A stretch of DNA of 64,000 bases from Alteromonas mediterranea DE (GTDB taxonomy: Bacteria > Pseudomonadota > Gammaproteobacteria > Enterobacterales > Alteromonadaceae), in the NCBI RefSeq assembly GCF_000020585.3, contig NC_011138.3:1705193-1769192 (forward strand). The letters run 5' to 3'. Each line of letters opens with the position of its first letter. Positions within the stretch are counted from its first letter, which is position 1. Positions 13,506-28,200 of the stretch are shown one piece after another. Position numbers and translations under genes: made by a program. The notes beneath the pieces were generated by a model. That model was not told where the DNA came from. It saw only the letters and a list, made by a program, of their open reading frames with translations, and did no database searches.

Positions 13506-13521
13506 TAGACCAAATGGTCAA
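13506..13521. promoter_or_regulatory. RutR-like operator, xdhA/regulator divergent promoter
   Basis: TAGACCAAATGGTCAA matches the E. coli RutR consensus TTGACCAnnTGGTCAA at 13 of 14 defined positions. It lies 60 bp before xdhA and 300 bp before the divergent RutR-like gene, so it may serve both. The surrounding intergenic stretch (13447-13820) holds no convincing gene; a small hairpin CCCCACAGTTGGGG is at 13694-13707. Confidence 0.75.
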
Positions 13522-13820
13522 TTTATTGCTTATAAAAAAAGGCCAGGTTATAAAAAGGCCATTATTTCGCGCCAATATTTTGGGGTTTTGAGCGAAAAGC
13601 TTTCCCAATTTCTGCGTCGCATGTATTGAATAAGGCAAGATTCGTGCAAGGTTTGAAGTAACACGCAAATTTCGTGCTTTAGTATGGTTAACACCCCACA
13701 GTTGGGGCATGTATACTTTATAGCAACTCATCGGCAATAAATGCTAACCTAACAATAAGGCATGCAGCATTATTCTGCCCGTGCGCTTGCAAAGTAGATT
13801 GCAAAGGAATTTAAATAATA

Positions 13821-14465
13821 ATGATGAAGGTAAAAAGTGCCGACGCTGGTGTTGGCGCTATGAACAGAAGAAAGATACTCCAAGCTGCTGAAAAGTGCTT
13901 CGCTCAGTTTGGTTTTAAAGGAACAGCGGTACAAAAAATTGCTGACGAAGCCGGGCTCCCGAAAACTAACGTACTGTACTATTTCAAAACCAAGCAAGAG
14001 CTTTACGTGGCGGTGCTAGAAGAAACCCTTTCACTGTGGAATTCTCGCTTCGATAGAGCAACGGTGGAGGATGACCCCGCAGAAGTGTTGGCTAACTATA
14101 TCGCTGAGAAAATGGAAGTATCGCGAACCAACCCCCAGGCGTCTAAGATCTTTGCTATGGAAATTATCAACGGTGCACAGAATTTAAGCGGCTACTTTGA
14201 TGAAGAGCACGCGCTGTGGATGAAGGGGCGTTTAGCAGTTATCGATGCGTGGGTAGAGGCAGGTAAGCTTCCCCCTGTTGAAGGCGAGTATTTGCTTTAC
14301 ACTATTTGGGCCAGTACCCAGCATTATGCCGATTTCTCTACGCAAATCACGCGGCTTCGCGGAAAGAAAATGACAAAGATAGACTTCGAGAACGCGACAA
14401 AGCAAGTGGTTAAGCTTGTATTAGGCGGATGTGGTTTGTCGGTACCTGAAAGCTTTGAGGTGTAA
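13821..14465 (+). CDS. RutR-like TetR-family regulator of purine catabolism
   Basis: 214 residues with an N-terminal TetR helix-turn-helix (about 15-62) reading FGFKGTAVQKIADEAG then PKTNVLYYF. E. coli RutR, as I recall it, has SKTNLLYYF in its recognition helix, KLEVSRDYPQAS in the middle and IWASTQHYADF near the C-terminus; this protein has EKMEVSRTNPQAS and IWASTQHYADF. The matching recognition helix agrees with the RutR-type palindromes found at four places in the window. In E. coli RutR senses uracil/thymine and controls pyrimidine and some purine genes; the ligand here is unknown. It is followed after 1 bp by puuE, so the two are cotranscribed. Starts at 13821, 13824 or 13860 are possible. 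Confidence 0.9.
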   Translation: MMKVKSADAGVGAMNRRKILQAAEKCFAQFGFKGTAVQKIADEAGLPKTNVLYYFKTKQELYVAVLEETLSLWNSRFDRATVEDDPAEVLANYIAEKMEVSRTNPQASKIFAMEIINGAQNLSGYFDEEHALWMKGRLAVIDAWVEAGKLPPVEGEYLLYTIWASTQHYADFSTQITRLRGKKMTKIDFENATKQVVKLVLGGCGLSVPESFEV

Positions 14466-14466
14466 C

Positions 14467-15378
14467 GTGACAGACGCTGTATATCCTAGAGATTTAGTGG
14501 GTTACGGTCAGCACGTACCCCATGCCAAATGGCCAAACAATGCCAAAATTGCCATACAGTTTGTATTGAATTACGAAGAGGGTGGTGAGAATTGTGTTCT
14601 TCACGGTGACGAAGCGTCCGAAATCTTTCTATCTGAAATTATAGGTGCACAAGCCTATAAAGACCGCCATCTTAGCATGGAGTCAATCTACGAATATGGC
14701 AGTCGAGCAGGGTTCTGGCGTTTACACCGCTTACTGAATAAGCACGAAATCCCCGTTACCGTATTTGGCGTTACAATGGCCATGCAAAGGCACCCTGAGG
14801 CGGTAAAAGCAATGATTGATTCTGGTTGGGAAATTGCCAGCCATGCTATGCGATGGGTGCATTACCAAGATATGGATGAAGAGCAAGAGCGCAAGCAAAT
14901 TGATGAAGCGATTATTCTTCACGAGCAGCTAACCGGGGCTAAACCTGTAGGGTGGTATACGGGAAGAACGAGCCCAAACACCTTAAAACTGATTGCCGAG
15001 CGAGACGATATATTATATTGCGCTGATTCCTACGCCGACGATTTGCCCTATTACGATTGTCACTACAGTAAGCCTCTACTCATGGTGCCCTATACGCTAG
15101 ATACTAACGACATGCGTTTTGCCACGCCGCAGGGGTTTAACAGCGGTGAGCAGTTCTTTACCTATTTAAAAGATGCATTTGATGTATTGTACGAAGAAGG
15201 TGAAGAAGCGCCTAAAATGCTTTCTATTGGCCTTCACAATCGCATTATTGGGCGGCCTGCTCGTATGGCGGCGCTACAGCGCTTTATTGAGTACGTAAAG
15301 TCACACGATAAGGTATGGCTGGCTACAAGAGAGCAAATTGCCCGCCATTGGCTTGATACTCATCCTAAAGACGAGTGA
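14467..15378 (+). CDS. puuE: Allantoinase PuuE (polysaccharide deacetylase fold)
   Basis: Opens the allantoin ring to allantoate. It belongs to the metal-independent PuuE type, related to polysaccharide deacetylases and not to classical AllB. Characteristic stretches are YPRDLVGYGQHVPHAKWP at the start, VLNYEEGGEN, WEIASHAMRWVHY, GWYTGRTSPNT and LSIGLHNRIIGRPAR. The frame is open to an ATG at 14431 inside the regulator gene, but the GTG at 14467 follows the regulator stop by 1 bp and has GAGGTG at proper distance, giving 303 residues, which fits the family. It completes the urate-to-allantoate section. Confidence 0.93.
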   Translation: MTDAVYPRDLVGYGQHVPHAKWPNNAKIAIQFVLNYEEGGENCVLHGDEASEIFLSEIIGAQAYKDRHLSMESIYEYGSRAGFWRLHRLLNKHEIPVTVFGVTMAMQRHPEAVKAMIDSGWEIASHAMRWVHYQDMDEEQERKQIDEAIILHEQLTGAKPVGWYTGRTSPNTLKLIAERDDILYCADSYADDLPYYDCHYSKPLLMVPYTLDTNDMRFATPQGFNSGEQFFTYLKDAFDVLYEEGEEAPKMLSIGLHNRIIGRPARMAALQRFIEYVKSHDKVWLATREQIARHWLDTHPKDE

Positions 15379-15483
15379 CAAATTGCACCATTAGCGTTTA
15401 CAGTGCACCAAGAAGATATACATTTCGTAAAGCGAACGATGAAAAAGCGTTTTCCGTTCGCTTTTAGCCAAAGGACATTAACG

Positions 15484-15741
15484 ATGAAAGTAAAATTAGC
15501 ACTAATTGCACTTGGCGCACTCGCGCTTACCGGATGCTCTAAGCTGACCAAAGAAAACTATGACAAGCTAGAAATGGGGATGACTCAGGATGAAGTAGAG
15601 TCGATATTAGGCTCTGCTGACAATTGCGGTAAAACCATGGGAACCACGGCGTGTACGTGGGGTAGTGAAGATGAAAAACACGTAAAAATTGTGTTCATGG
15701 GCGATAAGGCGGTTACCTTTACTTATGACGGCCTTAAGTAA
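15484..15741 (+). CDS. Small DUF3862/SmpA-like lipoprotein
   Basis: 85 residues. The start MKVKLALIALGALALTGCSK is a lipoprotein signal with lipobox LTGC, so a membrane-anchored lipoprotein. The rest (MGMTQDEVESILG, ACTWGSEDEKHVKIVFMGDKAV) resembles the compact BamE/SmpA-like fold of DUF3862. I chose ATG 15484 over an upstream in-frame ATG at 15403 because AAAGGA lies 10 bases before it and the signal peptide then begins at residue 1. Function unknown; it follows puuE but has its own leader and probably no link to purines. Confidence 0.82.
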   Translation: MKVKLALIALGALALTGCSKLTKENYDKLEMGMTQDEVESILGSADNCGKTMGTTACTWGSEDEKHVKIVFMGDKAVTFTYDGLK

Positions 15742-15789
15742 AACGGCGCTTAGCTAAAGTTAGGTCAAAAAAGTCTACATTATTTATCT

Positions 15790-15826
15790 AAAAAAAGGTG
15801 GCTAATTTAAATTAGCCACCTTTTTT
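15790..15826. terminator. Bidirectional intrinsic terminator
   Basis: AAAAAAGGTGGCTAATTT is followed immediately by its exact reverse complement, giving an 18-bp perfect stem with A- and T-runs on both sides. It separates the plus-strand lipoprotein gene from the minus-strand permease gene and would work for both. Confidence 0.93.
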
Positions 15827-15877
15827 GTATTTATTGCTATAGCGTGATTTCTATCGCATTATAAGCGCGCTTAGCAG

Positions 15878-17209
15878 TTATTTTAGGTCCAGCAAGTATC
15901 GCAGTAAGAATACAACCGCAAGTGCGTAGGTAAGTGGGGTTACGTCTTTGAACTTTCCTGTACCCACCTTAATGCCCACATAGGTAATAAAACCAAGCGC
16001 GATACCTTCGCTGATACTAAAGGTGAGAGGCATTGCAATAAGTGCTACAGAGGCCGTTGCCAGTGCGCCTAGATCATCGAAGTCAACTTGACGAATCGAT
16101 TCCATCATTAAAATACCCACCATGAGAAGTGCAGGTGTGGTGGCCATGAGAGGGATCACTTTCATCAGCGGCGTCAAAAACAGTGATAATAAGAAGCACA
16201 CTGACACTACGACCGCGGTAAGGCCTGTTCGGCCACCTGAAGAAACGCCGGTGGCAGACTCTACATAGCTTGTTACTGGCGATGTGCCGACCATTGCGCC
16301 GGCAATACTCGCTGACGCATCAGCAGTCATCGCCGCGCCAATTTTAGGGAGTTTACCCTCAGGTGTGAGCAGGTTTGCTTTTCGCGAAACGCCAATGAGT
16401 GTGCCGATGGTATCGAACATGTTGACAAACATAAGCGCAAAAATAAGGTCCCATGTCTCAGCAAGGTGGTCGATAGGATACCAAAAGTCCATTGCCATAA
16501 AGGTGTTTGATATCGACTCTGGCATGCCTACAACGGCAGATGGCGTGGCTGTAAGTGTGCCATTCTCAGTAGGAACGAATGCGCCGATAAGTGTAAGCGT
16601 TACGATAGATATTAAAATGGCACCTGTTACGCGCTTTACCATAAGTACAATAGTAAAAATGATACCCGCAAGGGCGAGCATAACAGCGGGTTCTGAAAGG
16701 TCGCCTAGCTGCACAAATGTGGCTGGGTTATCAACAATAAGCCCTGCGTTTTTAAGGCCAATAAAAGCAATGAACAAACCGATGCCGCACTGCACGCCAA
16801 TTTTAAGCGACGGCGGAATAGATTCGGCTATTTTTGTTCGCACCCCTGTCAGTGACAGTATAAGAAAAAGAATACCATTCCAAAAAACGATACCTAATGC
16901 TGCTTCCCATGGGATCTCTCGACCAAGGCAAATGGTAAACGCAAAAAAAGCATTTAAACCCATGCCTGGTGCTAACGCGATAGGGTAATTTGTCATCAGT
17001 GCCATCATGAGCGTGCCGATACACGCTGCAATCGCTGTCACTGTAATTAAGCCCTCTACGGGCATACCGCTTAACCCCAAGATACCTGGATTGACCACAA
17101 GAATGTAAGACATAGCGGCAAACGTAGTTAGCCCCGCGATGATCTCTGTTCTTACTGTTGTTCCGTGTTCCTGCAGCTTAAATAGCCGTTCAATTACGTT
17201 ATTGGACAT
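15878..17209 (-). CDS. NCS2-family purine permease, AzgA type
   Basis: 443 residues with about 12 to 14 hydrophobic segments. The start TTVRTEIIAGLTTFAAMSYI and the stretches ALAPGMGLNAFFAF and GTSPVTSYVESATGVSSGGR are hallmarks of the AzgA/PurP branch of NCS2, which imports adenine, guanine or hypoxanthine by proton symport. The first in-frame start is a TTG at 17212; the ATG at 17209 is more likely. A RutR-like operator is centred about 60 bp upstream and is shared with the divergent adenine deaminase gene, so uptake and deamination of adenine are probably induced together. Confidence 0.88.
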   Translation of the reverse strand: MSNNVIERLFKLQEHGTTVRTEIIAGLTTFAAMSYILVVNPGILGLSGMPVEGLITVTAIAACIGTLMMALMTNYPIALAPGMGLNAFFAFTICLGREIPWEAALGIVFWNGILFLILSLTGVRTKIAESIPPSLKIGVQCGIGLFIAFIGLKNAGLIVDNPATFVQLGDLSEPAVMLALAGIIFTIVLMVKRVTGAILISIVTLTLIGAFVPTENGTLTATPSAVVGMPESISNTFMAMDFWYPIDHLAETWDLIFALMFVNMFDTIGTLIGVSRKANLLTPEGKLPKIGAAMTADASASIAGAMVGTSPVTSYVESATGVSSGGRTGLTAVVVSVCFLLSLFLTPLMKVIPLMATTPALLMVGILMMESIRQVDFDDLGALATASVALIAMPLTFSISEGIALGFITYVGIKVGTGKFKDVTPLTYALAVVFLLRYLLDLK

Positions 17210-17529
17210 CAAGAGTTCTCTGTGTGTGTTTCATTTATAGTTTTGTGCGTTAAAGCAATAAACTGACCAATTAGTCAACTTGTTGGTGTGTTTTGTGCTA
17301 ACTTAAAATTTTAGTACAATGAAAAAACAAAATTCATTGTATGACTTAACGTCACTAGCCAGGCGACATAAAGCCAGCCAAACGGTTAGTAAACACCATA
17401 GTTGATGTTAAAAAAACGCAAACAAAACCTAAATGAGCAATAGAACTCGTTTACAGATAGCATTAAAGATTAACTATAACGCACCAAATAAATGCATTCG
17501 CATTGTGATGGTGCAATAAGTGAGGGGCC
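17210..17529. other. Divergent promoter region, permease / adenine deaminase
   Basis: 320 bp without a gene. It holds a RutR-like palindrome at 17263-17278 and AT-rich DNA. No further repeat or RNA-like structure is evident. Confidence 0.6.
17263..17278. promoter_or_regulatory. RutR-like operator before the AzgA-type permease
   Basis: CTGACCAATTAGTCAA matches TTGACCAnnTGGTCAA at 12 of 14 defined positions. It lies 54 bp before the permease start and about 250 bp before the divergent adenine deaminase. Confidence 0.7.
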
Positions 17530-18540
17530 ATGTCGCTGTCATCCATAATTAACAACATTCCAAAGGCCGAACTGCATCTGCATATCGAAGGTAGCTTAAC
17601 GCCTGAACTCATGTGGCGCCTAGCTAAGAAGCACAGTGTAACACTTCCTTATGCCAGCGTGAAAGAGATAGAAGCTGCATATAACTTTGAAGACCTGCAA
17701 AGCTTTCTCGATTTATATTACGCTGGTGCTGGCGTGCTTAGGGACGAAGAGGACTTTTTCACACTCATGTGGGAATACCTAAGCCGATGCCATAAGGAAA
17801 ACATCGTTCATACGGAAATCATGTTCGACCCACAAACACACACCGAGCGTGATATTGGCTTTGACGTTTTTATGCCAGGCTTTCTACGGGCCATGGATAA
17901 AGCAAAACAAGAGTACGGCATTAGTAGTTATCTCATCATGTCTTTCTTGCGACACCTTCCTGAAAGCGCAGCTTTTGAAACACTCAGCGAAGCAGAACCG
18001 TATTACAAGCACATAACCGCTGTGGGGTTAGATAGCTCAGAGCTAGGGCATCCGCCGTCAAAATTTGAACGGGTATTTAAGAAAGCGAAATCACTGGGCT
18101 TTAAAATAGTCGCCCATGCTGGAGAAGAAGGCCCCGCTTCTTACATTTGGGAAGCCATTGAGCTTCTTGATGTTGACCGCATTGACCACGGGGTAAGGTG
18201 CCAAGAAGATAAAGCGCTTATGGCACTTTTAAGAGAAAGGCAAATTCCACTGACTGTATGCCCGCTAAGCAACCTTAAACTGTGTGTAATAGACGATATG
18301 AAGCAGCACAATATCGTTGAACTATTGAACGAAGGGCTATTGGTTACCGTTAATTCAGACGACCCCACATACTTCGGCGGTTTCTTAAACGACAACTTTG
18401 TTGCTTTACAAGAGTCTTTAGATATCGACGAAGATACAATTAGAACGTTGGCGGCAAACAGCTTTAAATCCAGCTTTTTACCTGAAGATGTTAAGCGCTC
18501 TTTTGTTGAGAAAGTCTTTAACGATAGAGAAAACTTTTAA
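17530..18540 (+). CDS. Adenine deaminase (ADA family)
   Basis: 336 residues of the adenosine deaminase fold, converting adenine to hypoxanthine. Zinc and catalytic residues are seen in ELHLHIEGS (about 15-23), VAHAGEEG, RIDHGVR and NSDDPTYFGG. The stretch IMFDPQTHTERD is the feature known from bacterial and fungal adenine deaminases of this fold, where adenosine deaminases have a different sequence, so I prefer adenine over adenosine as substrate. GAGGGG lies 4 bases before the ATG. The last codons (FNDRENF) belong to the first copies of a 19-bp tandem repeat that continues past the stop. It faces an adenine-type permease across a shared operator. Confidence 0.88.
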   Translation: MSLSSIINNIPKAELHLHIEGSLTPELMWRLAKKHSVTLPYASVKEIEAAYNFEDLQSFLDLYYAGAGVLRDEEDFFTLMWEYLSRCHKENIVHTEIMFDPQTHTERDIGFDVFMPGFLRAMDKAKQEYGISSYLIMSFLRHLPESAAFETLSEAEPYYKHITAVGLDSSELGHPPSKFERVFKKAKSLGFKIVAHAGEEGPASYIWEAIELLDVDRIDHGVRCQEDKALMALLRERQIPLTVCPLSNLKLCVIDDMKQHNIVELLNEGLLVTVNSDDPTYFGGFLNDNFVALQESLDIDEDTIRTLAANSFKSSFLPEDVKRSFVEKVFNDRENF

Positions 18541-18645
18541 CGTGAGGGGAAACCTTTAACGATAGAGAAAACCTTTAACGTGAGAAAAAACCGTTAACGT
18601 TAGAGTAAGTCTTTAACGTGAGAAAAAAACTTTAACGTTAAATGA
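18516..18645. repeat. Seven imperfect 19-bp tandem repeats over the end of the adenine deaminase gene
   Basis: Copies begin at 18516, 18534, 18554, 18573, 18592, 18611 and 18630, a steady 19-bp period (18 and 20 at the first two steps). A representative unit is CTTTAACGTGAGAAAAAAC. The first copy and the start of the second are inside the coding sequence; the rest fill the gap to the Hpt gene. No terminator is seen there. Confidence 0.85.
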
Positions 18646-18659
18646 CAAGGGGCATCATA

Positions 18660-19022
18660 CTACGCCCGCATTACATCAACGGTTTTTTTAATTAATTCGT
18701 CAAGCGCGGCCATGTCGCTTACTACGTTGCTAAGGTCGCCTTGCTTTGCTTTAACTTCAATTTCCGCTGCTTTTTCTCGAATGGCGTCAGCGCCCACATC
18801 GCCAGACACGCCTTTCATTGCATGGCTATTAAAGCGCACGCCTTCTGCGTCTTCCGCTTCTGCGGATACTTGAAGCGCATTTTGCTTTTGTTCGATTTGT
18901 GCCAAAAACATTTCAACAATGCGATTGAGTAGACCCTCGTTTCCCCCGAGCCTGCTTATTGCTGCCTCTTTATTCCATAACTTCTCTGTAGAGAGTGCGT
19001 GTTGTGCGTTTAACGTATCCAT
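18660..19022 (-). CDS. Free-standing Hpt phosphotransfer protein
   Basis: 120 residues of a single histidine phosphotransfer domain. The phospho-accepting His is H67 in SHAMKGVSGDVGA, the HxxKG signature of Hpt domains. There is no kinase or receiver domain attached. The frame is open to GTG 19031; ATG 19022 with GGGTG seven bases upstream is a better start. It should relay phosphate from a hybrid kinase to a separate receiver; a hybrid kinase without its own Hpt (21057) and a receiver-GGDEF protein (19975) are close by. Confidence 0.88.
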   Translation of the reverse strand: MDTLNAQHALSTEKLWNKEAAISRLGGNEGLLNRIVEMFLAQIEQKQNALQVSAEAEDAEGVRFNSHAMKGVSGDVGADAIREKAAEIEVKAKQGDLSNVVSDMAALDELIKKTVDVMRA

Positions 19023-19210
19023 GACTATCACCCAATCAATTGTTTCGTACCACTTTATAGTAATTGTTGTGCTTTAAAAAAACATTAGTCAATTGCTTTG
19101 ACTAATATTTTTACATAATGCATGGCTAATATATACTAAAGGTTAATGTTTTTTTGAGTATCTCAAGCGATACTGAACTCGGTTAATTGTTCCAAAGTTT
19201 GGTAATTCTC

Positions 19211-19776
19211 ATGGGAAGTGAGACACAGAAAGTAGTCATCATAGACGATGAGCCTACAACACTCTTGTTATTAGAAAGTGCAGTAGAATCTCTAGCAAAA
19301 GTCGTTACAGTCTCTCAAAGCGTACAAGCGTTTGATAGTGTTAAATTACATCGCCCAGACTTAGTTGTGCTGGATATAAGCATGCCTGAAATGTCAGGTT
19401 TTGAAGTGTGCAAGCAAATAAAGGTGTGTCCTGATACGGCTTCAATTCCTATTATCTTCGTTACATCCCACAGTGATATAGAAAATGAGCGCATTGCACT
19501 GTCCTAAGGCAGTTTCCACTTAACGTATTAAAAATAGATCGTTCCTTTATAATAGATATGGATACAGAGCAACAGGCGCACGATATTGTTACTGCAATCG
19601 TGCACTTAGCGTTAAGCCTCGAATTAAAGATTGTGGCTGAAGGTATAGAGACGCAATCCCACTTTAATGGTTTAAAAGCTCTGGGGTGTCACCTAGGGCA
19701 GGGGTATTTTATGTGTCGCCCTATGCCAATGAACAATTTCTTTACAAAGTTCATTGATGATATTGATGTGGCGTGA
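19211..19776 (+). pseudogene. Decayed response regulator-EAL gene (internal deletion and frameshift)
   Basis: Two fragments in different frames. The first (19211-19507) is a receiver domain from KVVIIDDEP through VVLDISMPEMSG to PIIFVTSHSDIENERIAL and then a stop. The second is open from about 19501 to 19776 and encodes only the last third of an EAL phosphodiesterase domain: LRQFPLNVLKIDRSFI, KIVAEGIETQSH, HLGQGYFMCRPM. The end of the receiver, the linker and the EAL core with its active site are missing, and the junction falls near 19500-19504. The simplest reading is one internal deletion in a receiver-EAL or receiver-GGDEF-EAL gene. The receiver resembles that of the next gene, so the two may be paralogues. 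Confidence 0.85.
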
Positions 19777-19974
19777 AAAAGCATTCTATAGGAGTAAGCC
19801 CTAATAGGTAAATTTATGTGCCATTTTTAATACCGATTAATTCCAAAAATATAGTGTTTTCAATACACATCTCTCTATAAGATGCTAGACTAGCTTTAAT
19901 TTATGTGGTTTCAAAAAAGTCCTAGGTAACAAAGGCTATGCCTTATCCCTTCGCGGTAATATATTAAAAAATTA

Positions 19975-20895
19975 ATGAATGGAATGGAAATAAAACCCTA
20001 CTCAGCGTGCCGGGTACTAATTGTTGACGATGAACCGATGAGTCGGTTGTTGTTGGAGTCAATACTAGAAAGCGTTTTTCATTGCACTGTAGTGGAATCC
20101 GGTAAAGACGCTATATCTAACTGCGAGGAGTGTTTGCCTGACTTAGTGTTACTCGACATGAATATGCCAGACATAAATGGGCTCGAAGTATGTGCAACGC
20201 TCAAAGCATCCCCGACGACAAGCCAAATACCGGTAATATTCGTTACCTCAACGATGGACATTGAAAGTGAAAATGCATGCTGGGAGGTTGGAGCGTCTGA
20301 CTTCGTTATGAAGCCAGTAAACGCCTCTACTTTAACGCACCGAGTCAAAACCCACCTCCAAAATAAGCTTCGTACTGAGTTTTTAGAAATGATGACATTT
20401 CATGATCAGTTAACGGGCCTGTACAACCGCATGTATCTGACCAAAGAAATCCCTCTGCTAATAAAACAAGTAGCGCGAGATAAAGGAATGGTTGGCGCGA
20501 TAATGATTGATATCGACTATTTCAAGCTTTTTAACGACCATTACGGGCATTTAGAAGGCGATAATTGCCTTAAGAAGGTTGCGCAGATTATTGCAGACAC
20601 CGTTAAACGGCCCAAAGATGCAGTGATCCGTTTTGGCGGTGAAGAATTCTTGGTAATTCTTCCCTACATCGATTATCAGGGAATAAAGCTCGTTGCCAAC
20701 CAACTCGTGAAAGCGGTGAGACAAGCAGGTATTGTGCACGAAAAAGGGATTAGCGGCTATGTATCAATTAGCGCTGGATATGCCGTATGGAAGGCAGCAG
20801 ACGTTGTAGACGAAGATTCAGCTTCACTTATCGAAGACGCAGATATTTCCCTTTTTGAGGCCAAAGAGCGAGGGCGAAATCAAGCGAAAGGCTAA
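19975..20895 (+). CDS. Response regulator with GGDEF output (diguanylate cyclase)
   Basis: 306 residues. The receiver domain (about 12-130) has the acidic pair in LIVDDEP, the phospho-acceptor D61 in LLDMNMPDING, the Thr in FVTSTMD and the Lys in VMKPVNA. The GGDEF domain (about 140-305) has the active variant GGEEF at 221-225 and an I-site RPKD at 212-215, five residues before it. Output should be c-di-GMP, controlled by phosphorylation. It lies between a decayed receiver-EAL gene and a hybrid histidine kinase, its probable source of phosphate through the Hpt protein. Confidence 0.92.
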   Translation: MNGMEIKPYSACRVLIVDDEPMSRLLLESILESVFHCTVVESGKDAISNCEECLPDLVLLDMNMPDINGLEVCATLKASPTTSQIPVIFVTSTMDIESENACWEVGASDFVMKPVNASTLTHRVKTHLQNKLRTEFLEMMTFHDQLTGLYNRMYLTKEIPLLIKQVARDKGMVGAIMIDIDYFKLFNDHYGHLEGDNCLKKVAQIIADTVKRPKDAVIRFGGEEFLVILPYIDYQGIKLVANQLVKAVRQAGIVHEKGISGYVSISAGYAVWKAADVVDEDSASLIEDADISLFEAKERGRNQAKG

Positions 20896-21056
20896 CGTGT
20901 ATAAAAATTGTGCCCTTATCGCCCTACAATCTATCCTATTGTTTAATGTCGTAAACAAAATATAAACGCTACTATTTGGCATTATAGAAGAAGTCTAATG
21001 TCGCAGTGCTTTGTGCGCTGCAGTGTTTCATCGGTGTTGAGCTTAGGTAGCGAGCC

Positions 21057-23060
21057 ATGGTTTATTTTGACGAGCAGTCGAGTTTAAATATTAAGTTGGA
21101 AGCACAGCTAAAAACCTCGCTAACGGGGTTAGTTCAGCGCGGCTGTGATTCGCTTGGTATCTTCCAAGCTATGCTACTGCAAATTGATGATGAAACAGTC
21201 AACGTTCTTGTAAAAGCCTCCTCTGCTTATCCCCCAAGCTTTAAGTCGATTCCCTCTTTTTCTTCATGTGTTTCTGTAGATAACTGTTTTCCTGCTAACA
21301 GCGCAAAAGCGTCGTCAGCCTTTAAGCAATGGTTTGCTGCATACTTTAATGGCGAAAAGTACATTCGCGGGCGTATTCACAATCTCGACGGAAATCGCGT
21401 TTGTCTGGTTTTCATTAATGCCTGTCCGGCACAGTCGATAAACCTTGAAAAAGTGGCGTTACTCGATGACTGGTTAAATGTGATGATTGAGAAGTTTCAC
21501 GTTGAAAAAGCGGAAACTAACCAGAATACCCTGTACGATAAGCTACAAAGCGTAGCAAATATTGGCACGTGGGAAGTAGATTTCACAACAAACGTTCTAA
21601 CTTGGTCATCACAAACTCGTCGCATACATGAAGTGGATGACGATTTTATTCCTTCACTAGAAACCGCAGTGGGTTTTTACAAAGAGGGATTTGACCGAGG
21701 TGAGATTAGCCGCATTGTTTCTCATACCGTCGAAACGGGTGAACCATGGAGTGCAACCCTCGAACTAGTTTCTGCAAAGGGTAACTCGGTGTGGATCGAA
21801 ACCCATGGTATGGCAGAAATGAAGCAGGGTAAATGCGTTCGGTTGTTCGGCACTTGTCAAAATGTGAATAAGTCGGTTCAGCTTAGGCTTGAGCTCGACG
21901 CCCGTCGTAAAGAAGCGGAAGCGGCGTCTAAAGAGCGTGGCATGTTGCTTTCGCGAATTAGTCACGAGTTAAAAACCCCGCTAAATGGTATTACGGGAAT
22001 GCTTCAGGCCATCAAGTTTGAAAATAAAGACAATGTTCGCATAAGAAAAGCAGATATTGCATTGCACAGCGCCGACCGGCTTTTATCGTTAATCAACGAT
22101 GTGCTTGACTATACGTCAATCATCAATGGAGAATTTTCCCTCAATTACAGCGATTTTTGTGTACGCTCACTAGCCGAAGATATCGTTGATGAGTTTAAAA
22201 ATAAATGTTCAGACAAAGGCGTCAGGCTTTATGCCGTATTGTCTTTTGACGATAACACCTATGTTAATGGTGATGCCGCAAGAATCAGTCAAGTTATTAC
22301 CAACTTGCTGTCAAATGCCGTCAAATTTACGGCAAAAGGCTACATTTCTATTCAGGTCACCCTAAAGCAGCAGGGAGATATACCTATCTTGCTCGCCTCT
22401 GTCGAAGACACAGGTGTGGGCATGAGCGATGACATATTGTCGCGTATATTCAGACCCTTCCAAAACGATACCGACAGTGCATCAGAAGAATTAAACGGTA
22501 ATGGTTTAGGCCTGTCTATCGTCAACCAACTGGTAGGAAAAATGGGCGGCGAGTTAGAAGTTCGCTCGAACGTGGGGAAGGGAACATGTTTCGATGTAGC
22601 CATCCCTATTGAAATGGCAACATTGGAAGAAACAGCGAACGAGGATGTCGAGATATCTTCTGAGCTTTTGACTGTGCCGATAAATATATTGGTCGTTGAT
22701 GACAACGACATAAACCGCCTTGTGCTGGCCTCCATGCTTGAAAGATTTAACTACGTGCCCGATGAGGCAGACAATGGCGAAGTTGCTGTCGAAATGGCCC
22801 GGGCGAAAAGATATGACCTTATTTTTATGGACTGTGCGATGCCAGTGCTTGATGGGATGAGCGCAACGAAAATCATTATGCAAGAAGGGCTGCTATCAAA
22901 ATACGGAAGAGTTGTCGCGGTAACCGCTAACACCACAGCCGAAGATAAAATTAGCTGTAGCGAAGCAGGAATGGCTGATTTTCTGTCAAAACCCGTGGTC
23001 CAGAACGACGTGACCGCGCAGGTTAGAACTGCATTGAACGCAAAGTCTATCACCGCTTAA
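21057..23060 (+). CDS. Hybrid sensor histidine kinase (N-terminal sensor, PAS, HisKA, HATPase, receiver)
   Basis: 667 residues, no membrane segments. Residues 1-155 form an unassigned sensor, possibly GAF-like. A PAS-like domain follows (about 160-285; VANIGTWEVDFTTNVLTWSS). HisKA has the phospho-His H303 in SRISHELKTPLNG. The ATPase domain shows NLLSNAVKFT, DTGVGMS and NGLGLSIVNQL. A receiver domain (about 540-660) begins ILVVDDNDINR, has the acceptor D592 in FMDCAMPVLDG and the Lys in FLSKPV. There is no Hpt domain, so phosphate has to leave through a separate Hpt, and one is encoded 2 kb upstream on the other strand. Confidence 0.92.
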   Translation: MVYFDEQSSLNIKLEAQLKTSLTGLVQRGCDSLGIFQAMLLQIDDETVNVLVKASSAYPPSFKSIPSFSSCVSVDNCFPANSAKASSAFKQWFAAYFNGEKYIRGRIHNLDGNRVCLVFINACPAQSINLEKVALLDDWLNVMIEKFHVEKAETNQNTLYDKLQSVANIGTWEVDFTTNVLTWSSQTRRIHEVDDDFIPSLETAVGFYKEGFDRGEISRIVSHTVETGEPWSATLELVSAKGNSVWIETHGMAEMKQGKCVRLFGTCQNVNKSVQLRLELDARRKEAEAASKERGMLLSRISHELKTPLNGITGMLQAIKFENKDNVRIRKADIALHSADRLLSLINDVLDYTSIINGEFSLNYSDFCVRSLAEDIVDEFKNKCSDKGVRLYAVLSFDDNTYVNGDAARISQVITNLLSNAVKFTAKGYISIQVTLKQQGDIPILLASVEDTGVGMSDDILSRIFRPFQNDTDSASEELNGNGLGLSIVNQLVGKMGGELEVRSNVGKGTCFDVAIPIEMATLEETANEDVEISSELLTVPINILVVDDNDINRLVLASMLERFNYVPDEADNGEVAVEMARAKRYDLIFMDCAMPVLDGMSATKIIMQEGLLSKYGRVVAVTANTTAEDKISCSEAGMADFLSKPVVQNDVTAQVRTALNAKSITA

Positions 23061-23094
23061 TGCAAAAGTTATTGCCAATAAGCGGCTTTTGCTT

Positions 23095-23268
23095 TTAGCG
23101 TGCCTTACGAGTTGAATGTTGTAATTCATTCCAGTGTTTAACGATATAATCTGTTACCTGAGAACCCACGCGATATGCTGCTTGAATAGCTGCATTCATC
23201 GCCGCATAGCCATCGCCCGAACTTTCAAGTTTAAGATTATCTGCAGCGCTTAAGCTTGGCGGTTGCAT
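23095..23268 (-). CDS. Possible small protein of 57 residues
   Basis: An ATG-started frame reads MQPPSLSAADNLKLESSG, then AMNAAIQAAYRVGSQVTDYI, and ends at the stop at 23095. Composition is protein-like with an amphipathic C-terminal half, but no ribosome site is seen before the ATG and I do not recognise the family. The frame is open for about 20 further codons upstream without a better start, so it could be the tail of a decayed gene. It lies beyond the terminator of the TonB receptor gene on the same strand. The rest of the 23061-23489 gap holds only that terminator. Confidence 0.35.
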   Translation of the reverse strand: MQPPSLSAADNLKLESSGDGYAAMNAAIQAAYRVGSQVTDYIVKHWNELQHSTRKAR

Positions 23269-23356
23269 CGTAAAATAATTCGCAGTACGTAAAATAAGAA
23301 GCGTATTGAGGAAAGTAAAAAGTTTTTATGAAGCAATGTGCATGGAAAGAAATCCT

Positions 23357-23405
23357 AAAAAAGAGCCAAGCACCGAAGTGACCTTCAGACAGTGTGCTGG
23401 GCTCT
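23357..23405 (-). terminator. Intrinsic terminator of the TonB receptor gene
   Basis: On the minus strand AGAGCCCAGCAC pairs with GTGCTTGGCTCT with one mismatch, followed by six T. It is 85 bp past the receptor stop codon. Confidence 0.8.
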
Positions 23406-23489
23406 CTAGTAAAAGTGAGGAGACAAACTGTCAGTGGTTGTCGCGCTAACGTCTATGCTACGCACGACAACCTTAACAGCATTGGCTAC

Positions 23490-25919
23490 CTAGAAGGTGT
23501 AAGTGAATTTCGCGTTGAAGTGACGCGGTAATTCAGGAAGCACAATTTGGCTACCGAACAGGTCAGGGAAGTTAGAACGGAAATAACGCTCATCCGTTAA
23601 GTTTTTAACCGTTAGGTTAAACGCCCAGTCTTCTGCCTGATATGACAATCCCGCATTTACAAGCGTGTAAGCAGGTAAGGTAACTGCAGCCGAGAACCCT
23701 GACGCTACTTCTTCTACATCTACCACGCTCACGTTAGCAGCATAGCCATTTTGAAAATCATAAGTGGCTGTTAGCGTGTAGATATTCTCAGGGATACCCG
23801 CTTTACGGCCGTCAGTATTGTTGAAGCCTTCGCCTATTAGGTTAAGGCCAATCACGTTACCGCCAAAGATCAGAGACGGATCTTCAAGGTTAACTAAGTC
23901 TTCAGCACCTAAGAAACCAAACTGATTACCGTTTTCAAGCGCCGTTAGGTTAATAACTTTGATATTGGTATAACCCGCCGACACAACCAAGTTGTCGTTC
24001 ACTACCCAGCGAAGCTCAAACTCGGTACCTTTATTGTTAGTGGTGTTGTTAGTAACCGTATTTTGTGCGTTAAAGTCAGTACGCTCTTGTTCAAATGATG
24101 ACAGTGCGAAGTATAGCGTGTCATCTAATAGTGAACCTTTAACACCAAACTCAATCAGTTCAGAGGTATCGAAAGCACTACCATCACCCAGCTGACCTAC
24201 GCCTATCTCAGCACCTTGTCCAGCTACCAATGTTGCCTGCTCTGCCGCAGTGATGTATGGAATTAAACCAAATTCAAATTCGTATGAAATACTTGCGTTC
24301 CACGACCATCCGTCGACGGTTTCTTCTGCAGAAACTGGTGTACCCTCGTTACCTTCAATGCGAGCACTTGGCAATATAAGGTCTTGACGCGAGGTGGACT
24401 CAATATCAATGGTGTCATAACGTACACCAAGAACAAGGTTTAAGCCCCAATCCCATGTTAAATCGGTCATCGCGGCAACGCCCAAATCTAAGTAGTTGCC
24501 CACGTCATAGTTGTCGTAGTTTTTGCCTGAACGGGTAGACAATAGGCGACGGTCCAGCGCAGAAGATGGCATCGTTAGGTCGCGACGGTTAAAGTACTCA
24601 TAAGTAAAATCATCACCGTGCTCAAAATCCGTGTAACGTACTGATGGCGAGAATTGGAACTGAGCGAGTAAGCCGTCGTTTTCATATTCTGTGGCAAAAA
24701 TAAGCTTGTCTTCTACCACCCAACTATCGTGGAACTGAGAGAATCCATAGGCATTTTCATTGATATTGTCGTATGCATCATAGAAAAGCTGGTTGCGAAT
24801 TTCCCAGTTATCCGTGTAGTAAATGGTGTCGAAGTATAGCGTGATGGCTTCGTTACCTAGCTGATCGTCCGGAGCAACCAGAACTTGGTTACCGCTAAGA
24901 GTAGTGGTTCCTACATTTTCCAGTTGCATTAATGCTGTAGCTTCATCGTCGGTAAAGCTCGATGCTGGAACGTAGAAAAAGCTTTCGCCGGCAATGTTTA
25001 TTGCGCCGTATTCTTCGTGACTAATTTGGCCATCGCCGTCGGTATCTAGCGGTTGCGCTGTACCTGTAATGTAAGTGCCGTCATCCACTAGTTCTTGCGT
25101 TAAACGGTTCCAGCCAGCTACTTGGTTGCCATCGTAGTCATGGTACATACCGCCAAACTCAAAGCGTAAGTTGTCTGTGATATCTACGTTGAAAGAGGCT
25201 TGAAGCACGGTTTGATCGGTTTGCGTATTATCGTAATAGCTATCTGAGTTCTCTAGCTCACCGTATATATAATAGCCCATCTCTTTACCAGCAACGCTTG
25301 CTGGGCCGCCAACTTCGGCGGTTAGAATGCTTTTATCCCATGAACCTGTGGTATAAGAAAGGGCACCGGTAGGGGCATCTAAATATTGCCCACCAGATGC
25401 GCGAGCAGATTTGGGGTTGAAGTTTAGGTAGCCGCCAATTTTAGACGGACCATAAATAGGTGATGCTGGGCCTCGAACAATATCAATTCGGCTTGATGCG
25501 CCAATAGGGGTAGGGTAGTTGCCTGGGTTATCAAGGCGCTTTACACCGCGAAAGTATGTTTCACCCGGTGTACCACGCACGTCAAGTGAACCGGCTACAC
25601 CAAAGAATGACTGGGTGAATGTACCAGGTGCGAATGCGACCAATTCATCAATATCAGAAACGTTGAAACGCTCCATTTGCTCTTGAGAAATAGTGGATGC
25701 TGAACGCGGTGTTTCCAGAATAGATTTACCAAAGCCGAAGACAGACTCAACGTCTTGGCCTGGTAAGCTGCCTAGCGACCCAGTTACCTGAATCTTTTCG
25801 ACATCTTTTTCTTTAACCTCTGTCTCTTCTTGCGCAAATGCTTGAGATGACAGTGCCACTGCGGTAGTCATCGCAAACGCTTTTGCTAGAGGAGATAATT
25901 TGAATGTAGTGTTTTTCAT
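23490..25919 (-). CDS. TonB-dependent outer-membrane receptor, predicted purine-related
   Basis: 809 residues. A signal peptide ends near AFAQ (residue 30), a TonB-box-like VEKIQVTGS follows at about 40-48, then the plug domain (to about 170; IDIVRGPASPIYGPSKIGGYLNF is unusually clear) and a 22-strand-type barrel ending in a terminal Phe (FTYTF). A loop at 292-303 reads DTDGDGQISHEE, a canonical 12-residue EF-hand calcium loop, uncommon in this family. Substrate is not readable from sequence. A RutR-like operator lies 107 bp upstream and a XanP-type permease is the next gene, so a purine or purine-derived ligand is inferred. It has its own terminator. Confidence 0.88.
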   Translation of the reverse strand: MKNTTFKLSPLAKAFAMTTAVALSSQAFAQEETEVKEKDVEKIQVTGSLGSLPGQDVESVFGFGKSILETPRSASTISQEQMERFNVSDIDELVAFAPGTFTQSFFGVAGSLDVRGTPGETYFRGVKRLDNPGNYPTPIGASSRIDIVRGPASPIYGPSKIGGYLNFNPKSARASGGQYLDAPTGALSYTTGSWDKSILTAEVGGPASVAGKEMGYYIYGELENSDSYYDNTQTDQTVLQASFNVDITDNLRFEFGGMYHDYDGNQVAGWNRLTQELVDDGTYITGTAQPLDTDGDGQISHEEYGAINIAGESFFYVPASSFTDDEATALMQLENVGTTTLSGNQVLVAPDDQLGNEAITLYFDTIYYTDNWEIRNQLFYDAYDNINENAYGFSQFHDSWVVEDKLIFATEYENDGLLAQFQFSPSVRYTDFEHGDDFTYEYFNRRDLTMPSSALDRRLLSTRSGKNYDNYDVGNYLDLGVAAMTDLTWDWGLNLVLGVRYDTIDIESTSRQDLILPSARIEGNEGTPVSAEETVDGWSWNASISYEFEFGLIPYITAAEQATLVAGQGAEIGVGQLGDGSAFDTSELIEFGVKGSLLDDTLYFALSSFEQERTDFNAQNTVTNNTTNNKGTEFELRWVVNDNLVVSAGYTNIKVINLTALENGNQFGFLGAEDLVNLEDPSLIFGGNVIGLNLIGEGFNNTDGRKAGIPENIYTLTATYDFQNGYAANVSVVDVEEVASGFSAAVTLPAYTLVNAGLSYQAEDWAFNLTVKNLTDERYFRSNFPDLFGSQIVLPELPRHFNAKFTYTF

Positions 25920-26025
25920 GGTTTCCTCGTTATTTTTAGTTGCCCTTTTTTAGGGCTTTATCAACGCAACATTTCTATTGCGCCTTGCTGTATGCAAGAG
26001 GGTTAGCAGGATGAGTGCCAACTAC

Positions 26026-26041
26026 TTAACCAGTTGGTCAA
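26026..26041. promoter_or_regulatory. RutR-like operator before the TonB receptor
   Basis: TTAACCAGTTGGTCAA matches TTGACCAnnTGGTCAA at 13 of 14 defined positions. It is 107 bp upstream of the receptor ATG, in the 243-bp gap to the XanP-type permease gene. Confidence 0.75.
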
Positions 26042-26162
26042 CTTTTAACCTGCTCTTAAGCTGCTGAATTATAGGGATAAAAAAATATAATGTTGTTCTT
26101 ATATTGTTATTTTTATGTAAATAGTTAAGGTTTTTCTAATTTATGCACTTTTACGGTGATTT

Positions 26163-27716
26163 TTATCGTGTTTTTGCACTATAAAGGGAAAAGGCTGCAT
26201 CTTGACGATGGTGAGTGCCCAGTATGGCTGTTATAGGTTTAGGAACATCGCGGGCGTTGTTAACCTCAAAGCCCGTATTATCTGCATGGAAAGCGTTCGA
26301 GCTTTGTTTACCTTGGCGTGTCGCCTTCTCGCGTTTGGCATTTTGTAACTGGTTTTCAGATGGCGTTTCACTTTTTGATTTGTGTGACGTTCTACCGGGT
26401 AAGGTTAAATCTAGTATGACAGCGGTAAGCCCTGCCGAAGTCACTGGAGAAAGCAAAATATTTTCAAGCCAATTTGGGAGTTCAGCTAGTGCCTGAGGCA
26501 CCATCATTACACCTATGGCCATGCCCAAAGCGCAGGCCGTTACCAAACTACTGCGTCTATCTAGGGCATAACTTGCAAGTAGCTTCAATCCGCCTACGGC
26601 CACCATGGCAAACATAACCAAGGTTGCACCGCCTAACACCGGTTTAGGAATAGCTTGAAGCACGCCGCCTACCACTGGAAAGCAGCCAATAAACACAAAT
26701 AGCCCAGCGACAAAAAAGCCTACTTTACGGCTCGCGATCCCCGTTAACTGGATCACGCCGTTGTTCTGCCCAAATGTGGTATTGGGAAAAGTGTTGAATA
26801 TGCCAGCAAGCAATGAATTTACGCCGTCACCCAAAATGCCGCCTTTAATGCGACGTAAATACACAGGCCCGGTGACTGGCTGCTTACAGAAAAGGCTGTT
26901 GGCGGTGAGGTCGCCAGCCGTTTCTATAGCGCTGAATAAGTAAATAAGCGCAATAGGCAAAAATAAGTTGATATCAAAGGCAATACCAAAAGCAAATGGC
27001 GTGGGAATAGCGACGATAGACAATGAAGATAAACCGCTAAAATCTAGCCCTTTAGTAAAGGCAATATAGGTGGCACCTATTGCCATGCCGATAAAAATGG
27101 CGCTTAAGCGAAGCCAATGATTTGATGACGCGTTCAGAAAAACAATGATTAGTAATACACCTAGCCCGACGATTAAGTTGTCGGTACTGGCAAAATCTGA
27201 AGCATTAAAGCCGCCGGCAAGGTCTGTCATGCCCACGTTAATTAAACTGAGACCTATTGCGGTAATAACGATACCTGTGGTCAGTGGTGTGATAATTCGC
27301 TTTAAGCGGTTTACAAACAAGCTGAATACAATTTCAACTGACGCACCTGCCATCGTTAAGCCAAATAGCAGGGCTAGGATATCTTCAGGCGTGCCACCAT
27401 TTGCTTTCACCTGACTACCGGCCAAAATCAATGCGCTGATAAACGCGAAGCTAGTACCTTGAATAGCAACAAGGCCACTGCCCACAGGCCCAATTCGCTT
27501 GGTTTGAATTGCCGTACCCACGCCGCTTACAAACAAAGCCATGCTAATCAAATAGGGAGTATACTCGCTTAACCCTAATGACGATGTGACGATAAGTGTT
27601 GGTGTAATTACGCCTACAAAACTGGCTAACAAGTGCTGAAACGCCGCGGTAAGTGATGGGAGAAATGCCGGGCTATCGTGTAAATCGTAAATTAACTCGC
27701 TGTTACCAGAAGACAT
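26163..27716 (-). CDS. NCS2-family xanthine/urate permease, XanP type
   Basis: 517 residues with about 12 to 14 hydrophobic segments up to residue 440. Family landmarks are AAFQHLLASFVGVITPTLIV (with the conserved His), SAIETAGDLTANSLFCK and GQNNGVIQLTGIASR, the nucleobase-ascorbate signature. It is the uric acid/xanthine branch of NCS2, different from the AzgA-type permease at 15.9 kb. The last about 70 residues are a hydrophilic tail rich in Lys, Ser and Asn with no recognised domain, longer than usual. A RutR-like operator lies 336 bp upstream, leaving a long leader. It would import the purine delivered to the periplasm by the TonB receptor. Confidence 0.87.
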   Translation of the reverse strand: MSSGNSELIYDLHDSPAFLPSLTAAFQHLLASFVGVITPTLIVTSSLGLSEYTPYLISMALFVSGVGTAIQTKRIGPVGSGLVAIQGTSFAFISALILAGSQVKANGGTPEDILALLFGLTMAGASVEIVFSLFVNRLKRIITPLTTGIVITAIGLSLINVGMTDLAGGFNASDFASTDNLIVGLGVLLIIVFLNASSNHWLRLSAIFIGMAIGATYIAFTKGLDFSGLSSLSIVAIPTPFAFGIAFDINLFLPIALIYLFSAIETAGDLTANSLFCKQPVTGPVYLRRIKGGILGDGVNSLLAGIFNTFPNTTFGQNNGVIQLTGIASRKVGFFVAGLFVFIGCFPVVGGVLQAIPKPVLGGATLVMFAMVAVGGLKLLASYALDRRSSLVTACALGMAIGVMMVPQALAELPNWLENILLSPVTSAGLTAVILDLTLPGRTSHKSKSETPSENQLQNAKREKATRQGKQSSNAFHADNTGFEVNNARDVPKPITAILGTHHRQDAAFSLYSAKTR

Positions 27717-28051
27717 GGTTATTCCTTATTTCACGCAGACAGTAAAAGCACTTGTAGACAAAGCACTTATTAATAAAGCACTGTAGAAGAAGTGAAGTGC
27801 GTTTGTTTTTTTGAAAGACGGGACCTCGGCCGTAAGTATCCACGCTTGCTGGCGGAGAACTCGACACGTTTGCGATGCGCTTTGTGAGCCCATACCCCTT
27901 TTGAACCAAGCGTTAGCATTTCTATCAACGACACGCGTGGCAACAAGGCTATGCAGGCATGAAAAGCACAGCGGTAAAAAACGTAAGGGTGGTAAAGCAA
28001 ATAACATGGCCGGAGATAGGTAAATAAAGTATATCCATGAACTGCAAGATG
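27717..28051 (-). other. Long untranslated leader of the XanP-type permease gene
   Basis: 335 bp between a RutR-like operator and the permease start. Open frames here do not look like proteins. Close to the gene, AGTGCTTT recurs three times at 15-bp steps (27736-27783, read on the minus strand). I looked for a riboswitch-like fold and could not establish one. Confidence 0.4.
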
Positions 28052-28067
28052 TTGACCAACTGGTCTG
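28052..28067. promoter_or_regulatory. RutR-like operator before the XanP-type permease
   Basis: TTGACCAACTGGTCTG matches TTGACCAnnTGGTCAA at 12 of 14 defined positions, including both full GACCA/TGGTC cores. It is 336 bp upstream of the permease start, which is farther than at the other sites. Confidence 0.7.
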
Positions 28068-28171: not shown

Positions 28172-28200
28172 CAAAAAAATGCGCTAAATTAGCGCATTTA
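28172..28200 (-). terminator. Intrinsic terminator after the cupin gene
   Basis: AAATGCGCTAA and TTAGCGCATTT form an 11-bp stem with a one-base loop, so the apex probably opens. On the minus strand a run of seven T follows. It ends the ureide operon 25 bp after the cupin stop. Confidence 0.85.

What the first reader, a model, noticed from the sequence alone, without database searches (positions are those of the whole stretch)
13506..28067. RutR-type operators define a purine uptake and degradation regulon
Four palindromes (13506, 17263, 26026, 28052) match TTGACCAnnTGGTCAA at 12 or 13 of 14 positions and occur only before purine genes: xdhA/the regulator gene, AzgA permease/adenine deaminase, TonB receptor, XanP permease. 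The window encodes a TetR protein whose recognition helix and C-terminal motifs match E. coli RutR as I remember it. In E. coli RutR mainly serves pyrimidine breakdown, so here the same protein-DNA pair seems to have become the master switch of purine use, joining outer-membrane uptake, inner-membrane uptake and degradation.
Basis: partly seen in the sequence, partly recalled or inferred. Interest (0 to 1): 0.75.

Follow-up and report, generated by a model that had tools for sequence, protein, structure and literature searches.

The report
Purine-use regulon of a RutR paralogue
A marine Alteromonas bacterium appears to switch on purine uptake, purine breakdown and perhaps swimming towards purines together, using a sister protein of the known uracil sensor RutR that binds its own, slightly different DNA sites.

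Summary
The four palindromes are real, conserved across Alteromonas and far above chance. The regulon reading holds and extends beyond the window: the same motif precedes a second TonB receptor, a 2OG-Fe(II) oxygenase, a ribokinase/nucleoside hydrolase pair (in relatives) and a chemoreceptor that matches the purine sensor McpH and carries the published purine-binding motif. The claim that E. coli's RutR and its operator were converted to purine use does not hold. The same genome keeps a second, true RutR beside rutA-F, with a distinguishable operator (half-site T[G/A][G/A]ACC instead of mostly TTGACCA). The window regulator is a paralogue in a separate, purine-associated subfamily of PF08362. 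It keeps all five residues that contact uracil in RutR but has N at position 78; D/N/E there marks the purine-context clade (exploratory). Best explanation: a TetR-type repressor released by a purine-pathway metabolite. DNA binding, regulatory sign and effector are inferred, not shown. Against: one genome without any close RutR relative keeps a perfect site, and several targets lack the site in part of the genus. New variant of a known kind.

The parts
13506..13521 (.). Operator TAGACCAAATGGTCAA between xdhA and the regulator gene
   Evidence: 16 of 18 named loci L028-L045 keep a <=2-mismatch site upstream of xdhA or the regulator (in L032 the contig begins there); island of conservation in the alignment
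17263..17278 (.). Operator CTGACCAATTAGTCAA between azgA and add
   Evidence: 15 of the 17 named loci that hold azgA keep a <=2-mismatch site; alignment
26026..26041 (.). Operator TTAACCAGTTGGTCAA upstream of the TonB receptor
   Evidence: site at <=2 mismatches in 24 of 27 genus genomes scored, control 3 of 27
28052..28067 (.). Operator TTGACCAACTGGTCTG upstream of xanP; overlaps a weak promoter-like match 28055-28028 (-)
   Evidence: site at <=2 mismatches in 13 of 28 genus genomes scored, control 0 of 28
13821..14465 (+). TetR-family regulator, paralogue of RutR (PF08362); keeps W77, Y97, W167, Q171, Q179 of RutR, has N at position 78
14431..15378 (+). puuE, allantoinase, overlapping the end of the regulator gene
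11998..13446 (-). xdhA, xanthine dehydrogenase small subunit, first gene after operator 13506
9639..12026 (-). xdhB, xanthine dehydrogenase molybdopterin subunit
8701..9642 (-). xdhC, xanthine dehydrogenase accessory protein
8211..8753 (-). uraD, OHCU decarboxylase
7832..8164 (-). uraH, hydroxyisourate hydrolase
6519..7826 (-). guaD, guanine deaminase
5207..6487 (-). membrane protein resembling PuuD-type urate oxidase (recalled resemblance; no NCBIfam match)
15878..17212 (-).
17530..18540 (+). add, adenosine (or adenine) deaminase
23490..25919 (-). TonB-dependent receptor, substrate unknown
26163..27716 (-). XanP/PbuX-like xanthine permease (NCS2; 389.8 bits, just under the PbuX cut-off of 414)
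28177..28199 (-). Terminator-like hairpin after the 121-aa gene at 28225-28590, which would separate that operon from xanP
28709..29974 (-). allantoate amidohydrolase; no operator of this type found upstream of its gene run (pathway member, regulation not shown)
29937..31217 (-). aminotransferase, PucG-like by recall (no NCBIfam cut-off passed); same gene run, no operator found

Best explanation
The window holds the core of a purine-use regulon controlled by a TetR-type regulator that is a paralogue of RutR. The dimer binds a 16-bp palindrome, consensus (C/T)TGACCAnnTGGTCA(A/G), in front of xdhA-xdhB-xdhC-uraD-uraH-guaD-puuD-like, its own gene with puuE, azgA, add, a TonB receptor and xanP. 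Outside the window the same motif stands before a second TonB receptor, a 2OG-Fe(II) oxygenase, a McpH-like purine chemoreceptor and, in relatives, a ribokinase/nucleoside hydrolase pair. It most likely represses, including its own gene. It probably lets go when a purine-pathway compound (xanthine, urate or hypoxanthine) fills a pocket inherited from the uracil sensor; xanthine and urate carry the same dione ring as uracil. True RutR persists in the same genome with its own operator variant at rutA. Shown by sequence: the conserved sites, the paralogy, the two distinguishable operator types, the conserved pocket residues. Inferred: DNA binding by this protein, repression, the effector.
For: Sites far above chance and conserved as islands. 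Per target in genus genomes that have the paralogue, best site within 450 bp upstream at <=2 mismatches, reversed control in brackets: xdhA 9 of 9 (0), tbdr 24 of 27 (3), xanP 13 of 28 (0), chemoreceptor 13 of 17 (0; two of the 13, G004 and G021, lie about 400 bp up and may not be the same site), second TonB receptor 12 of 20 (1), 2OG oxygenase 9 of 20 (0). Sites persist where no true RutR was found: xdhA 9 of 9, tbdr 11 of 13, xanP 5 of 14, chemoreceptor 8 of 11, second TonB receptor 8 of 13, oxygenase 4 of 13. In the two genomes lacking both proteins that could be scored (G012, G014), chemoreceptor, second TonB receptor and oxygenase have no site (0 of 2 each). The regulator gene lies beside an operator and among the targets. 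At operator position -7, all 28 RutR half-sites have A or G, none T; in purine operators collected by alignment rather than by pattern T stands in 54 of 72 half-sites (azgA 36 of 36, xdhA 18 of 36). The chemoreceptor's sensor domain matches McpH (8bmv, E 6e-22) and has the Y-R-W-F-N motif (motif from PMC11245519, passages read). Pocket residues of RutR are conserved (residues from PMC10891134, passages read). Purine-linked relatives outside the genus also carry such sites near the regulator: L334, L335 and L338 at <=1 mismatch.
Against: G030, in which no close RutR relative was found, keeps a perfect TTGACCATCTGGTCAA before the ribokinase/nucleoside hydrolase pair (L238): a relic, or another factor uses the motif. 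Sites are missing before xanP in 15 of 28, before the oxygenase in 11 of 20 and before the second TonB receptor in 8 of 20 paralogue-bearing genomes. Only two genomes lacking the protein could be scored, and they are also divergent; genome-wide counts in the three such genomes are 5 against 3, 9 against 2 and 4 against 5, so G014 shows an excess without the protein. The same motif is used by pyrimidine-context family members elsewhere (L324, L330, L331, L333), so the motif alone does not name the function. The xdhA operator has one half (TAGACC) of the RutR type. Conserved uracil contacts allow that the effector is still uracil. No binding or expression data exist.
Confidence: 0.8

Rival explanations
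1. The regulon is real but the signal is uracil: the paralogue still senses uracil and uses it as a general sign of nucleic-acid breakdown, switching on purine use alongside the rut operon.
For: All five uracil-contacting residues of E. coli RutR are kept in every member of the Alteromonas paralogue clade aligned. Some targets are nucleoside genes that would also serve pyrimidines.
Against: D/N/E at position 78 clusters with purine context (12 purine, 0 pyrimidine; other W77 members 1 and 45), though essentially as one clade. Genomes in which no RutR was found keep the regulon. Core targets are purine-specific by annotation.
Confidence: 0.2
2. True RutR, not the paralogue, controls these sites, or the two proteins share them.
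For: The xdhA and oxygenase sites score moderately with the RutR matrix (16.2 and 16.9; own rutA 20.3): one half-site, TAGACC, fits both.
Against: Sites are kept in genomes where no RutR was found. The own rutA operator scores 7.4 with the purine matrix; azgA and the second TonB receptor score 7.4 and 4.9 with the RutR matrix. The purine matrix was built from pattern-chosen sites that include own ones, so its own scores are not independent.
Confidence: 0.1
3. The palindromes are mostly chance or belong to a widespread unrelated factor, and the link with purine genes is coincidence.
For: At <=3 mismatches the genome shows no excess (254 against 277). A site survives in G030 without a close RutR relative. 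The order outside the genus also shows some excess (105 against 64).
Against: Conservation and per-target controls; 0 of 400 simulations reach the observed count.
Confidence: 0.03

Closest known systems
RutR of E. coli (TetR family, PF08362; uracil-responsive regulator of rutA-G)
   Same: Same family and domain; 148 bits to the solved structures; same recognition-helix lysine and the five uracil contacts; closely related palindromic operator; regulator gene beside an operator
   Different: Separate subfamily in the tree; misses both RutR equivalog cut-offs; coexists with a true RutR in the same genome; operator mostly has T rather than A/G at position -7; purine rather than rut targets
RutR-type protein PA1504 of Pseudomonas aeruginosa near the gcl cluster (PMC12694930, passages read)
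   Same: [quoted passage not shown] its authors raise it as a candidate regulator
   Different: That group appears here as the gcl clade without W77 (equating it with PA1504 is my inference); regulation there is not shown; here the purine genes themselves carry the operators
XdhR of Streptomyces coelicolor (TetR family; PMC6627660, passages read)
   Same: TetR-type repressor of xanthine dehydrogenase genes
   Different: Answers to ppGpp and GTP; whether it belongs to PF08362 was not tested here; no wide uptake and chemotaxis regulon is described in the passages read
McpH purine chemoreceptor of Pseudomonas putida and the dCache_1PU domain (PMC11245519, passages read)
   Same: The chemoreceptor behind the 486980 operator matches the McpH sensor domain and motif
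   Different: Here its gene carries a conserved operator of the purine regulator; no such control was seen in the passages read

Membership tests
RutR (equivalog, TIGR03613 / NF011584) | Score above the curated equivalog cut-off | tested here: not met
   195 of 368 bits; 166 of 230 bits. The own rutA-linked RutR scores 299.6, also under 368, so TIGR03613 is strict.
RutR (equivalog) | Groups with E. coli RutR, apart from other PF08362 subfamilies | tested here: not met
   EcRutR, own RutR and 42 other rows lie on one side of a branch with SH-aLRT 100; the window protein is on the other (quick tree); same split with weaker support (90/83)
RutR (equivalog) | Linked to the rut operon | tested here: not met
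   rutA-F lie about 2.1 Mb away beside the other RutR
RutR (equivalog) | Binds uracil | not testable with these tools
   Contact residues W77, Y97, W167, Q171, Q179 are conserved; binding unknown
PF08362 / YcdC-like TetR family | TetR_N plus TetR_C_3 domains above gathering scores | tested here: met
   TetR_C_3 162.4 (cut-off 25) and TetR_N 48.3 (cut-off 24) bits
dCache_1PU purine chemoreceptor (gene behind operator 486980) | Sensor domain related to McpH | tested here: met
   8bmv, E 6.3e-22 over residues 15-249 of the 256-residue piece given; Pfam dCache_1 56.1 bits, cut-off 45
dCache_1PU purine chemoreceptor (gene behind operator 486980) | Motif Y-[RK]-W-F-[DN] in the ligand pocket | tested here: met
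   Y118, R126, W136, F162, N164; two of the four spacings are one residue shorter than in McpH; ligand binding untested

The most novel reading that the evidence does not exclude
PF08362 contains a purine-sensing subfamily, marked by a polar residue (D/N/E) next to the stacking tryptophan W77, in which the uracil pocket of RutR was retuned to the uracil-like ring of xanthine or urate. In Alteromonas this sensor coordinates chemotaxis, two outer-membrane receptors, inner-membrane permeases and the degradation pathway, kept apart from the coexisting RutR mainly by one changed operator position.
Probability: 0.4. Interest if true: 0.65.

Novelty: new variant of a known kind. Interest (0 to 1): 0.5.

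Why it matters
Purines are traded between marine microbes, and Alteromonas is a common marine heterotroph (general knowledge, no call). A single regulon joining swimming, outer and inner membrane transport and breakdown would explain how such a cell commits to purines. It also gives a pair of paralogous sensors in one cell, with separate operators and almost the same pocket, for asking which residues switch a regulator from pyrimidines to purines. It predicts functions for two TonB receptors and an oxygenase with unknown substrates.

Tried and rejected
Rejected: that the window protein is RutR itself. Rejected: that a <=3-mismatch genome count says anything. Weak: promoter predictions around the operators do not exceed shuffles (1 against 1.7; 2 against 4.1). 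Considered: S. coelicolor XdhR as the known match; different ligand, and the C. necator XdhR is of the LysR family (PMC7057948, passages read).

Literature: ten searches were run. bear on this regulator; two searches were on chemoreceptors and cross-feeding. In their listings, and in the passages read of seven papers (PMC5343134, PMC10891134, PMC11245519, PMC9736018, PMC7057948, PMC6627660, PMC12694930), I saw no RutR-family regulator of a purine regulon demonstrated; PMC12694930 raises one as a possibility. PMC5343134 (passages) counts 273 RutR sites in 68 genomes, but its supplementary gene lists and RegPrecise could not be read, so parts of this regulon may be listed there already.

Limits of the position-78 result: it was noticed while looking at the alignment, so it is exploratory. 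The Fisher p of 1.5e-11 ignores kinship: on the tree the D/N/E rows are one group (one change, SH-aLRT 85), and independent pairs number 2, of which 1 agrees and 1 does not differ (column 78 itself was left in that tree). Of the 100 places scored, 33 had neither a purine, a pyrimidine nor a gcl marker nearby. A few genes occur twice among the 100 because loci overlap (for example L291/L298 and L274/L351). Flanks were 1.5 kb for L262-L291 and about 4 kb for most others. I chose the regions from 125 of 398 genomes with a match and from earlier hits, not at random. Identity of neighbours is by tblastn to reference proteins at E 1e-12.

Other limits. The W-D/E-F/L group of family code f184 (nine rows) gives no uniform picture: only L312 has a <=1-mismatch site just upstream of the regulator and L293 one elsewhere, so its operator may differ. 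The 81 sites behind the purine matrix were chosen with a pattern that has T at position -7, so the 83% T is biased; one search gives the count from alignments instead. In one search only 6 of 19 chemoreceptor loci gave a readable frame under my filter; all 6 have the motif, 13 were not read; several with the motif lack the operator. Orthologues of the second TonB receptor go down to 37% identity and may be paralogues; where a genome had two candidate loci (G003, G005, G006, G010) the better site was kept. For xdhA, 7 of 16 loci were dropped because they lie outside the genus or hold no usable xdhA start. One search did not list the one-mismatch site at 26026, although searches do; its listing is incomplete.
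Full report
OBSERVATION. The four palindromes are at 13506, 17263, 26026 and 28052 with 13, 12, 13 and 12 of 14 matches to TTGACCAnnTGGTCAA. Five <=2-mismatch sites occur in the window; 400 Markov simulations gave a mean of 0.20 and at most 2. The fifth, at 32742, is inside the ggt-like gene and scores low. Genome-wide the loose pattern is uninformative (254 against 277), while YTGACCANNTGGTCAR at <=1 mismatch gives 12 against 4. Summed over the 36 genus genomes that is 357 against 117, and over the 24 others of the order 105 against 64 (sums).

CONSERVATION. Upstream of xdhA and the regulator, 16 of 18 named loci (L028-L045) keep a <=2-mismatch site; between azgA and add, 15 of the 17 that have azgA. 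In alignments both stand out against poorly conserved surroundings, and the loci that fail the mismatch limit still have a recognisable site at the aligned place. Around xanP and the TonB receptor the sites recur through the genus. A table by target and genome with a reversed-pattern control is; its counts are given under the best explanation.

WHAT THE GENES ARE. The gene run read from operator 13506 goes through xdhA, xdhB, xdhC, uraD, uraH, guaD and a PuuD-like membrane protein; that it is one transcript is inferred. On the other side lie the regulator and puuE. With add, azgA and xanP this covers the way from purine bases to allantoate. The allantoate amidohydrolase and aminotransferase genes (28709-31217) have no such site and may be regulated otherwise.

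THE REGULATOR IS A PARALOGUE. The own genome has two PF08362 proteins. The second, at 3805350-3806021, scores 299.6 bits to RutR and sits divergently beside genes that match E. coli rutA, rutB, rutC, rutD, rutE and rutF at 73, 70, 69, 43, 58 and 50% identity. The window protein scores 194.5. In a tree of 114 family rows, E. coli RutR and the own RutR lie in a group of 44 cut off by a branch with SH-aLRT 100; the window protein lies in a group of 30, all with D, N or E at position 78 (SH-aLRT 85). In the genus, 14 of 36 genomes have true RutR, while 33 of 36 have the paralogue or a close relative of it; G012, G014 and G030 have neither (my reading).

TWO OPERATORS. The rutA-rutR spacer of 14 genus genomes contains a conserved palindrome with half-site T[G/A][G/A]ACC. 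Of 28 RutR half-sites none has T at position -7. In purine operators collected by alignment, T stands in all 36 azgA half-sites and in 18 of 36 xdhA half-sites, the xdhA site having one TAGACC half. The own rutA operator scores 20.3 with the RutR matrix and 7.4 with the purine matrix; the purine matrix came from pattern-chosen sites that include the own ones, so own purine scores are not an independent test. The E. coli rutA-rutR spacer holds TGGACTAAACGGTCAA, one half of each type.

BEYOND THE WINDOW. Conserved sites stand before a second TonB receptor (3831547), a 2OG-Fe(II) oxygenase (3835638; two sites 24 bp apart in 5 of 25 loci at <=3 mismatches) and a chemoreceptor (486980). The chemoreceptor's sensor domain matches McpH, the purine receptor, and carries the published purine-binding residues (PMC11245519, passages read). 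This supports a purine role of the motif without using the window's genes. A perfect site at 3241509 corresponds in relatives to a site before a ribokinase-like gene and a nucleoside hydrolase: both signatures lie beside the site in 11 of the 29 loci that brought, one locus per genome (names by eye). In the own genome neither signature was found in the 18 kb examined, where other genes (phage-like by my reading) follow. One of the 11 is G030, in which neither regulator was found; this counts against a simple one-factor reading.

LIGAND. In E. coli RutR, uracil is stacked by W77 and W167 and contacted by Q171, Y97 (through water) and Q179 of the partner (PMC10891134, figure legend read). All are conserved in the Alteromonas paralogue clade. 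Residue 78 is N there and L in E. coli and own RutR. Across 100 places in fetched loci, W77 members with D/N/E78 had purine markers nearby in 12 of 21 and pyrimidine markers in 0; the other W77 members had pyrimidine markers in 45 of 63 and purine markers alone in 1 (L124). This is essentially one clade, so it is a subfamily mark, not proof of function.

WHAT IS KNOWN. The E. coli regulator is described as coordinating pyrimidine and purine metabolism, with glxR among reported targets (PMC10891134, abstract and passages). A December 2025 paper suggests, untested, that a RutR-type protein may act on the allantoin-induced gcl cluster of P. aeruginosa (PMC12694930, passages). A purine regulon of a RutR paralogue was not seen in the searches named under what was tried; RegPrecise could not be read.

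VERDICT. Real, conserved, and a new variant of a known kind: same family of regulator, related operator, different branch, different targets, probably a different signal.

Noticed in passing
L070:18796-19637 (own genome 3835795-3836636): The 2OG-Fe(II) oxygenase gene behind the operator is split into two overlapping frames (131 and 149 aa) in the own genome, while genus relatives carry one open frame of 283-314 aa. Intact copies exist in relatives.
   Followed up: partly
L072:9510 onward (own genome 3241509): A perfect operator is followed in the own genome by unrelated, phage-like genes, whereas in 11 relatives a ribokinase-like gene and a nucleoside hydrolase follow.
   Followed up: partly
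window 17212-17530: Upstream of add, GCACCA and TGGTGC blocks conserved in the alignment resemble NtrC sites (recalled consensus), suggesting nitrogen control on top of the purine regulator.
   Followed up: no
own genome 952066 and 1282204 (L007, L002/L074): Further one-mismatch sites between a phoU-like and a phosphate-permease-like gene (named by eye), and before an EamA-family transporter.
   Followed up: no
own genome 2556848 and 2641947 (L358, L359): Two more one-mismatch sites whose surroundings were not looked at.
   Followed up: no
L130, L134 (genomes G032, G005): Some Alteromonas genomes carry a third kind of PF08362 protein that groups apart from both others.
   Followed up: no
L262-L269, L271, L272, L274, L279, L294, L306, L341, L351: A PF08362 clade lacking W77, 8 of 16 rows beside a glyoxylate carboligase gene, has no <=2-mismatch site of this kind in 15 of 16 loci and may bind another ligand.
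   Followed up: partly
window 32742-32757: A two-mismatch operator-like site inside the ggt-like gene, low matrix score.
   Followed up: yes
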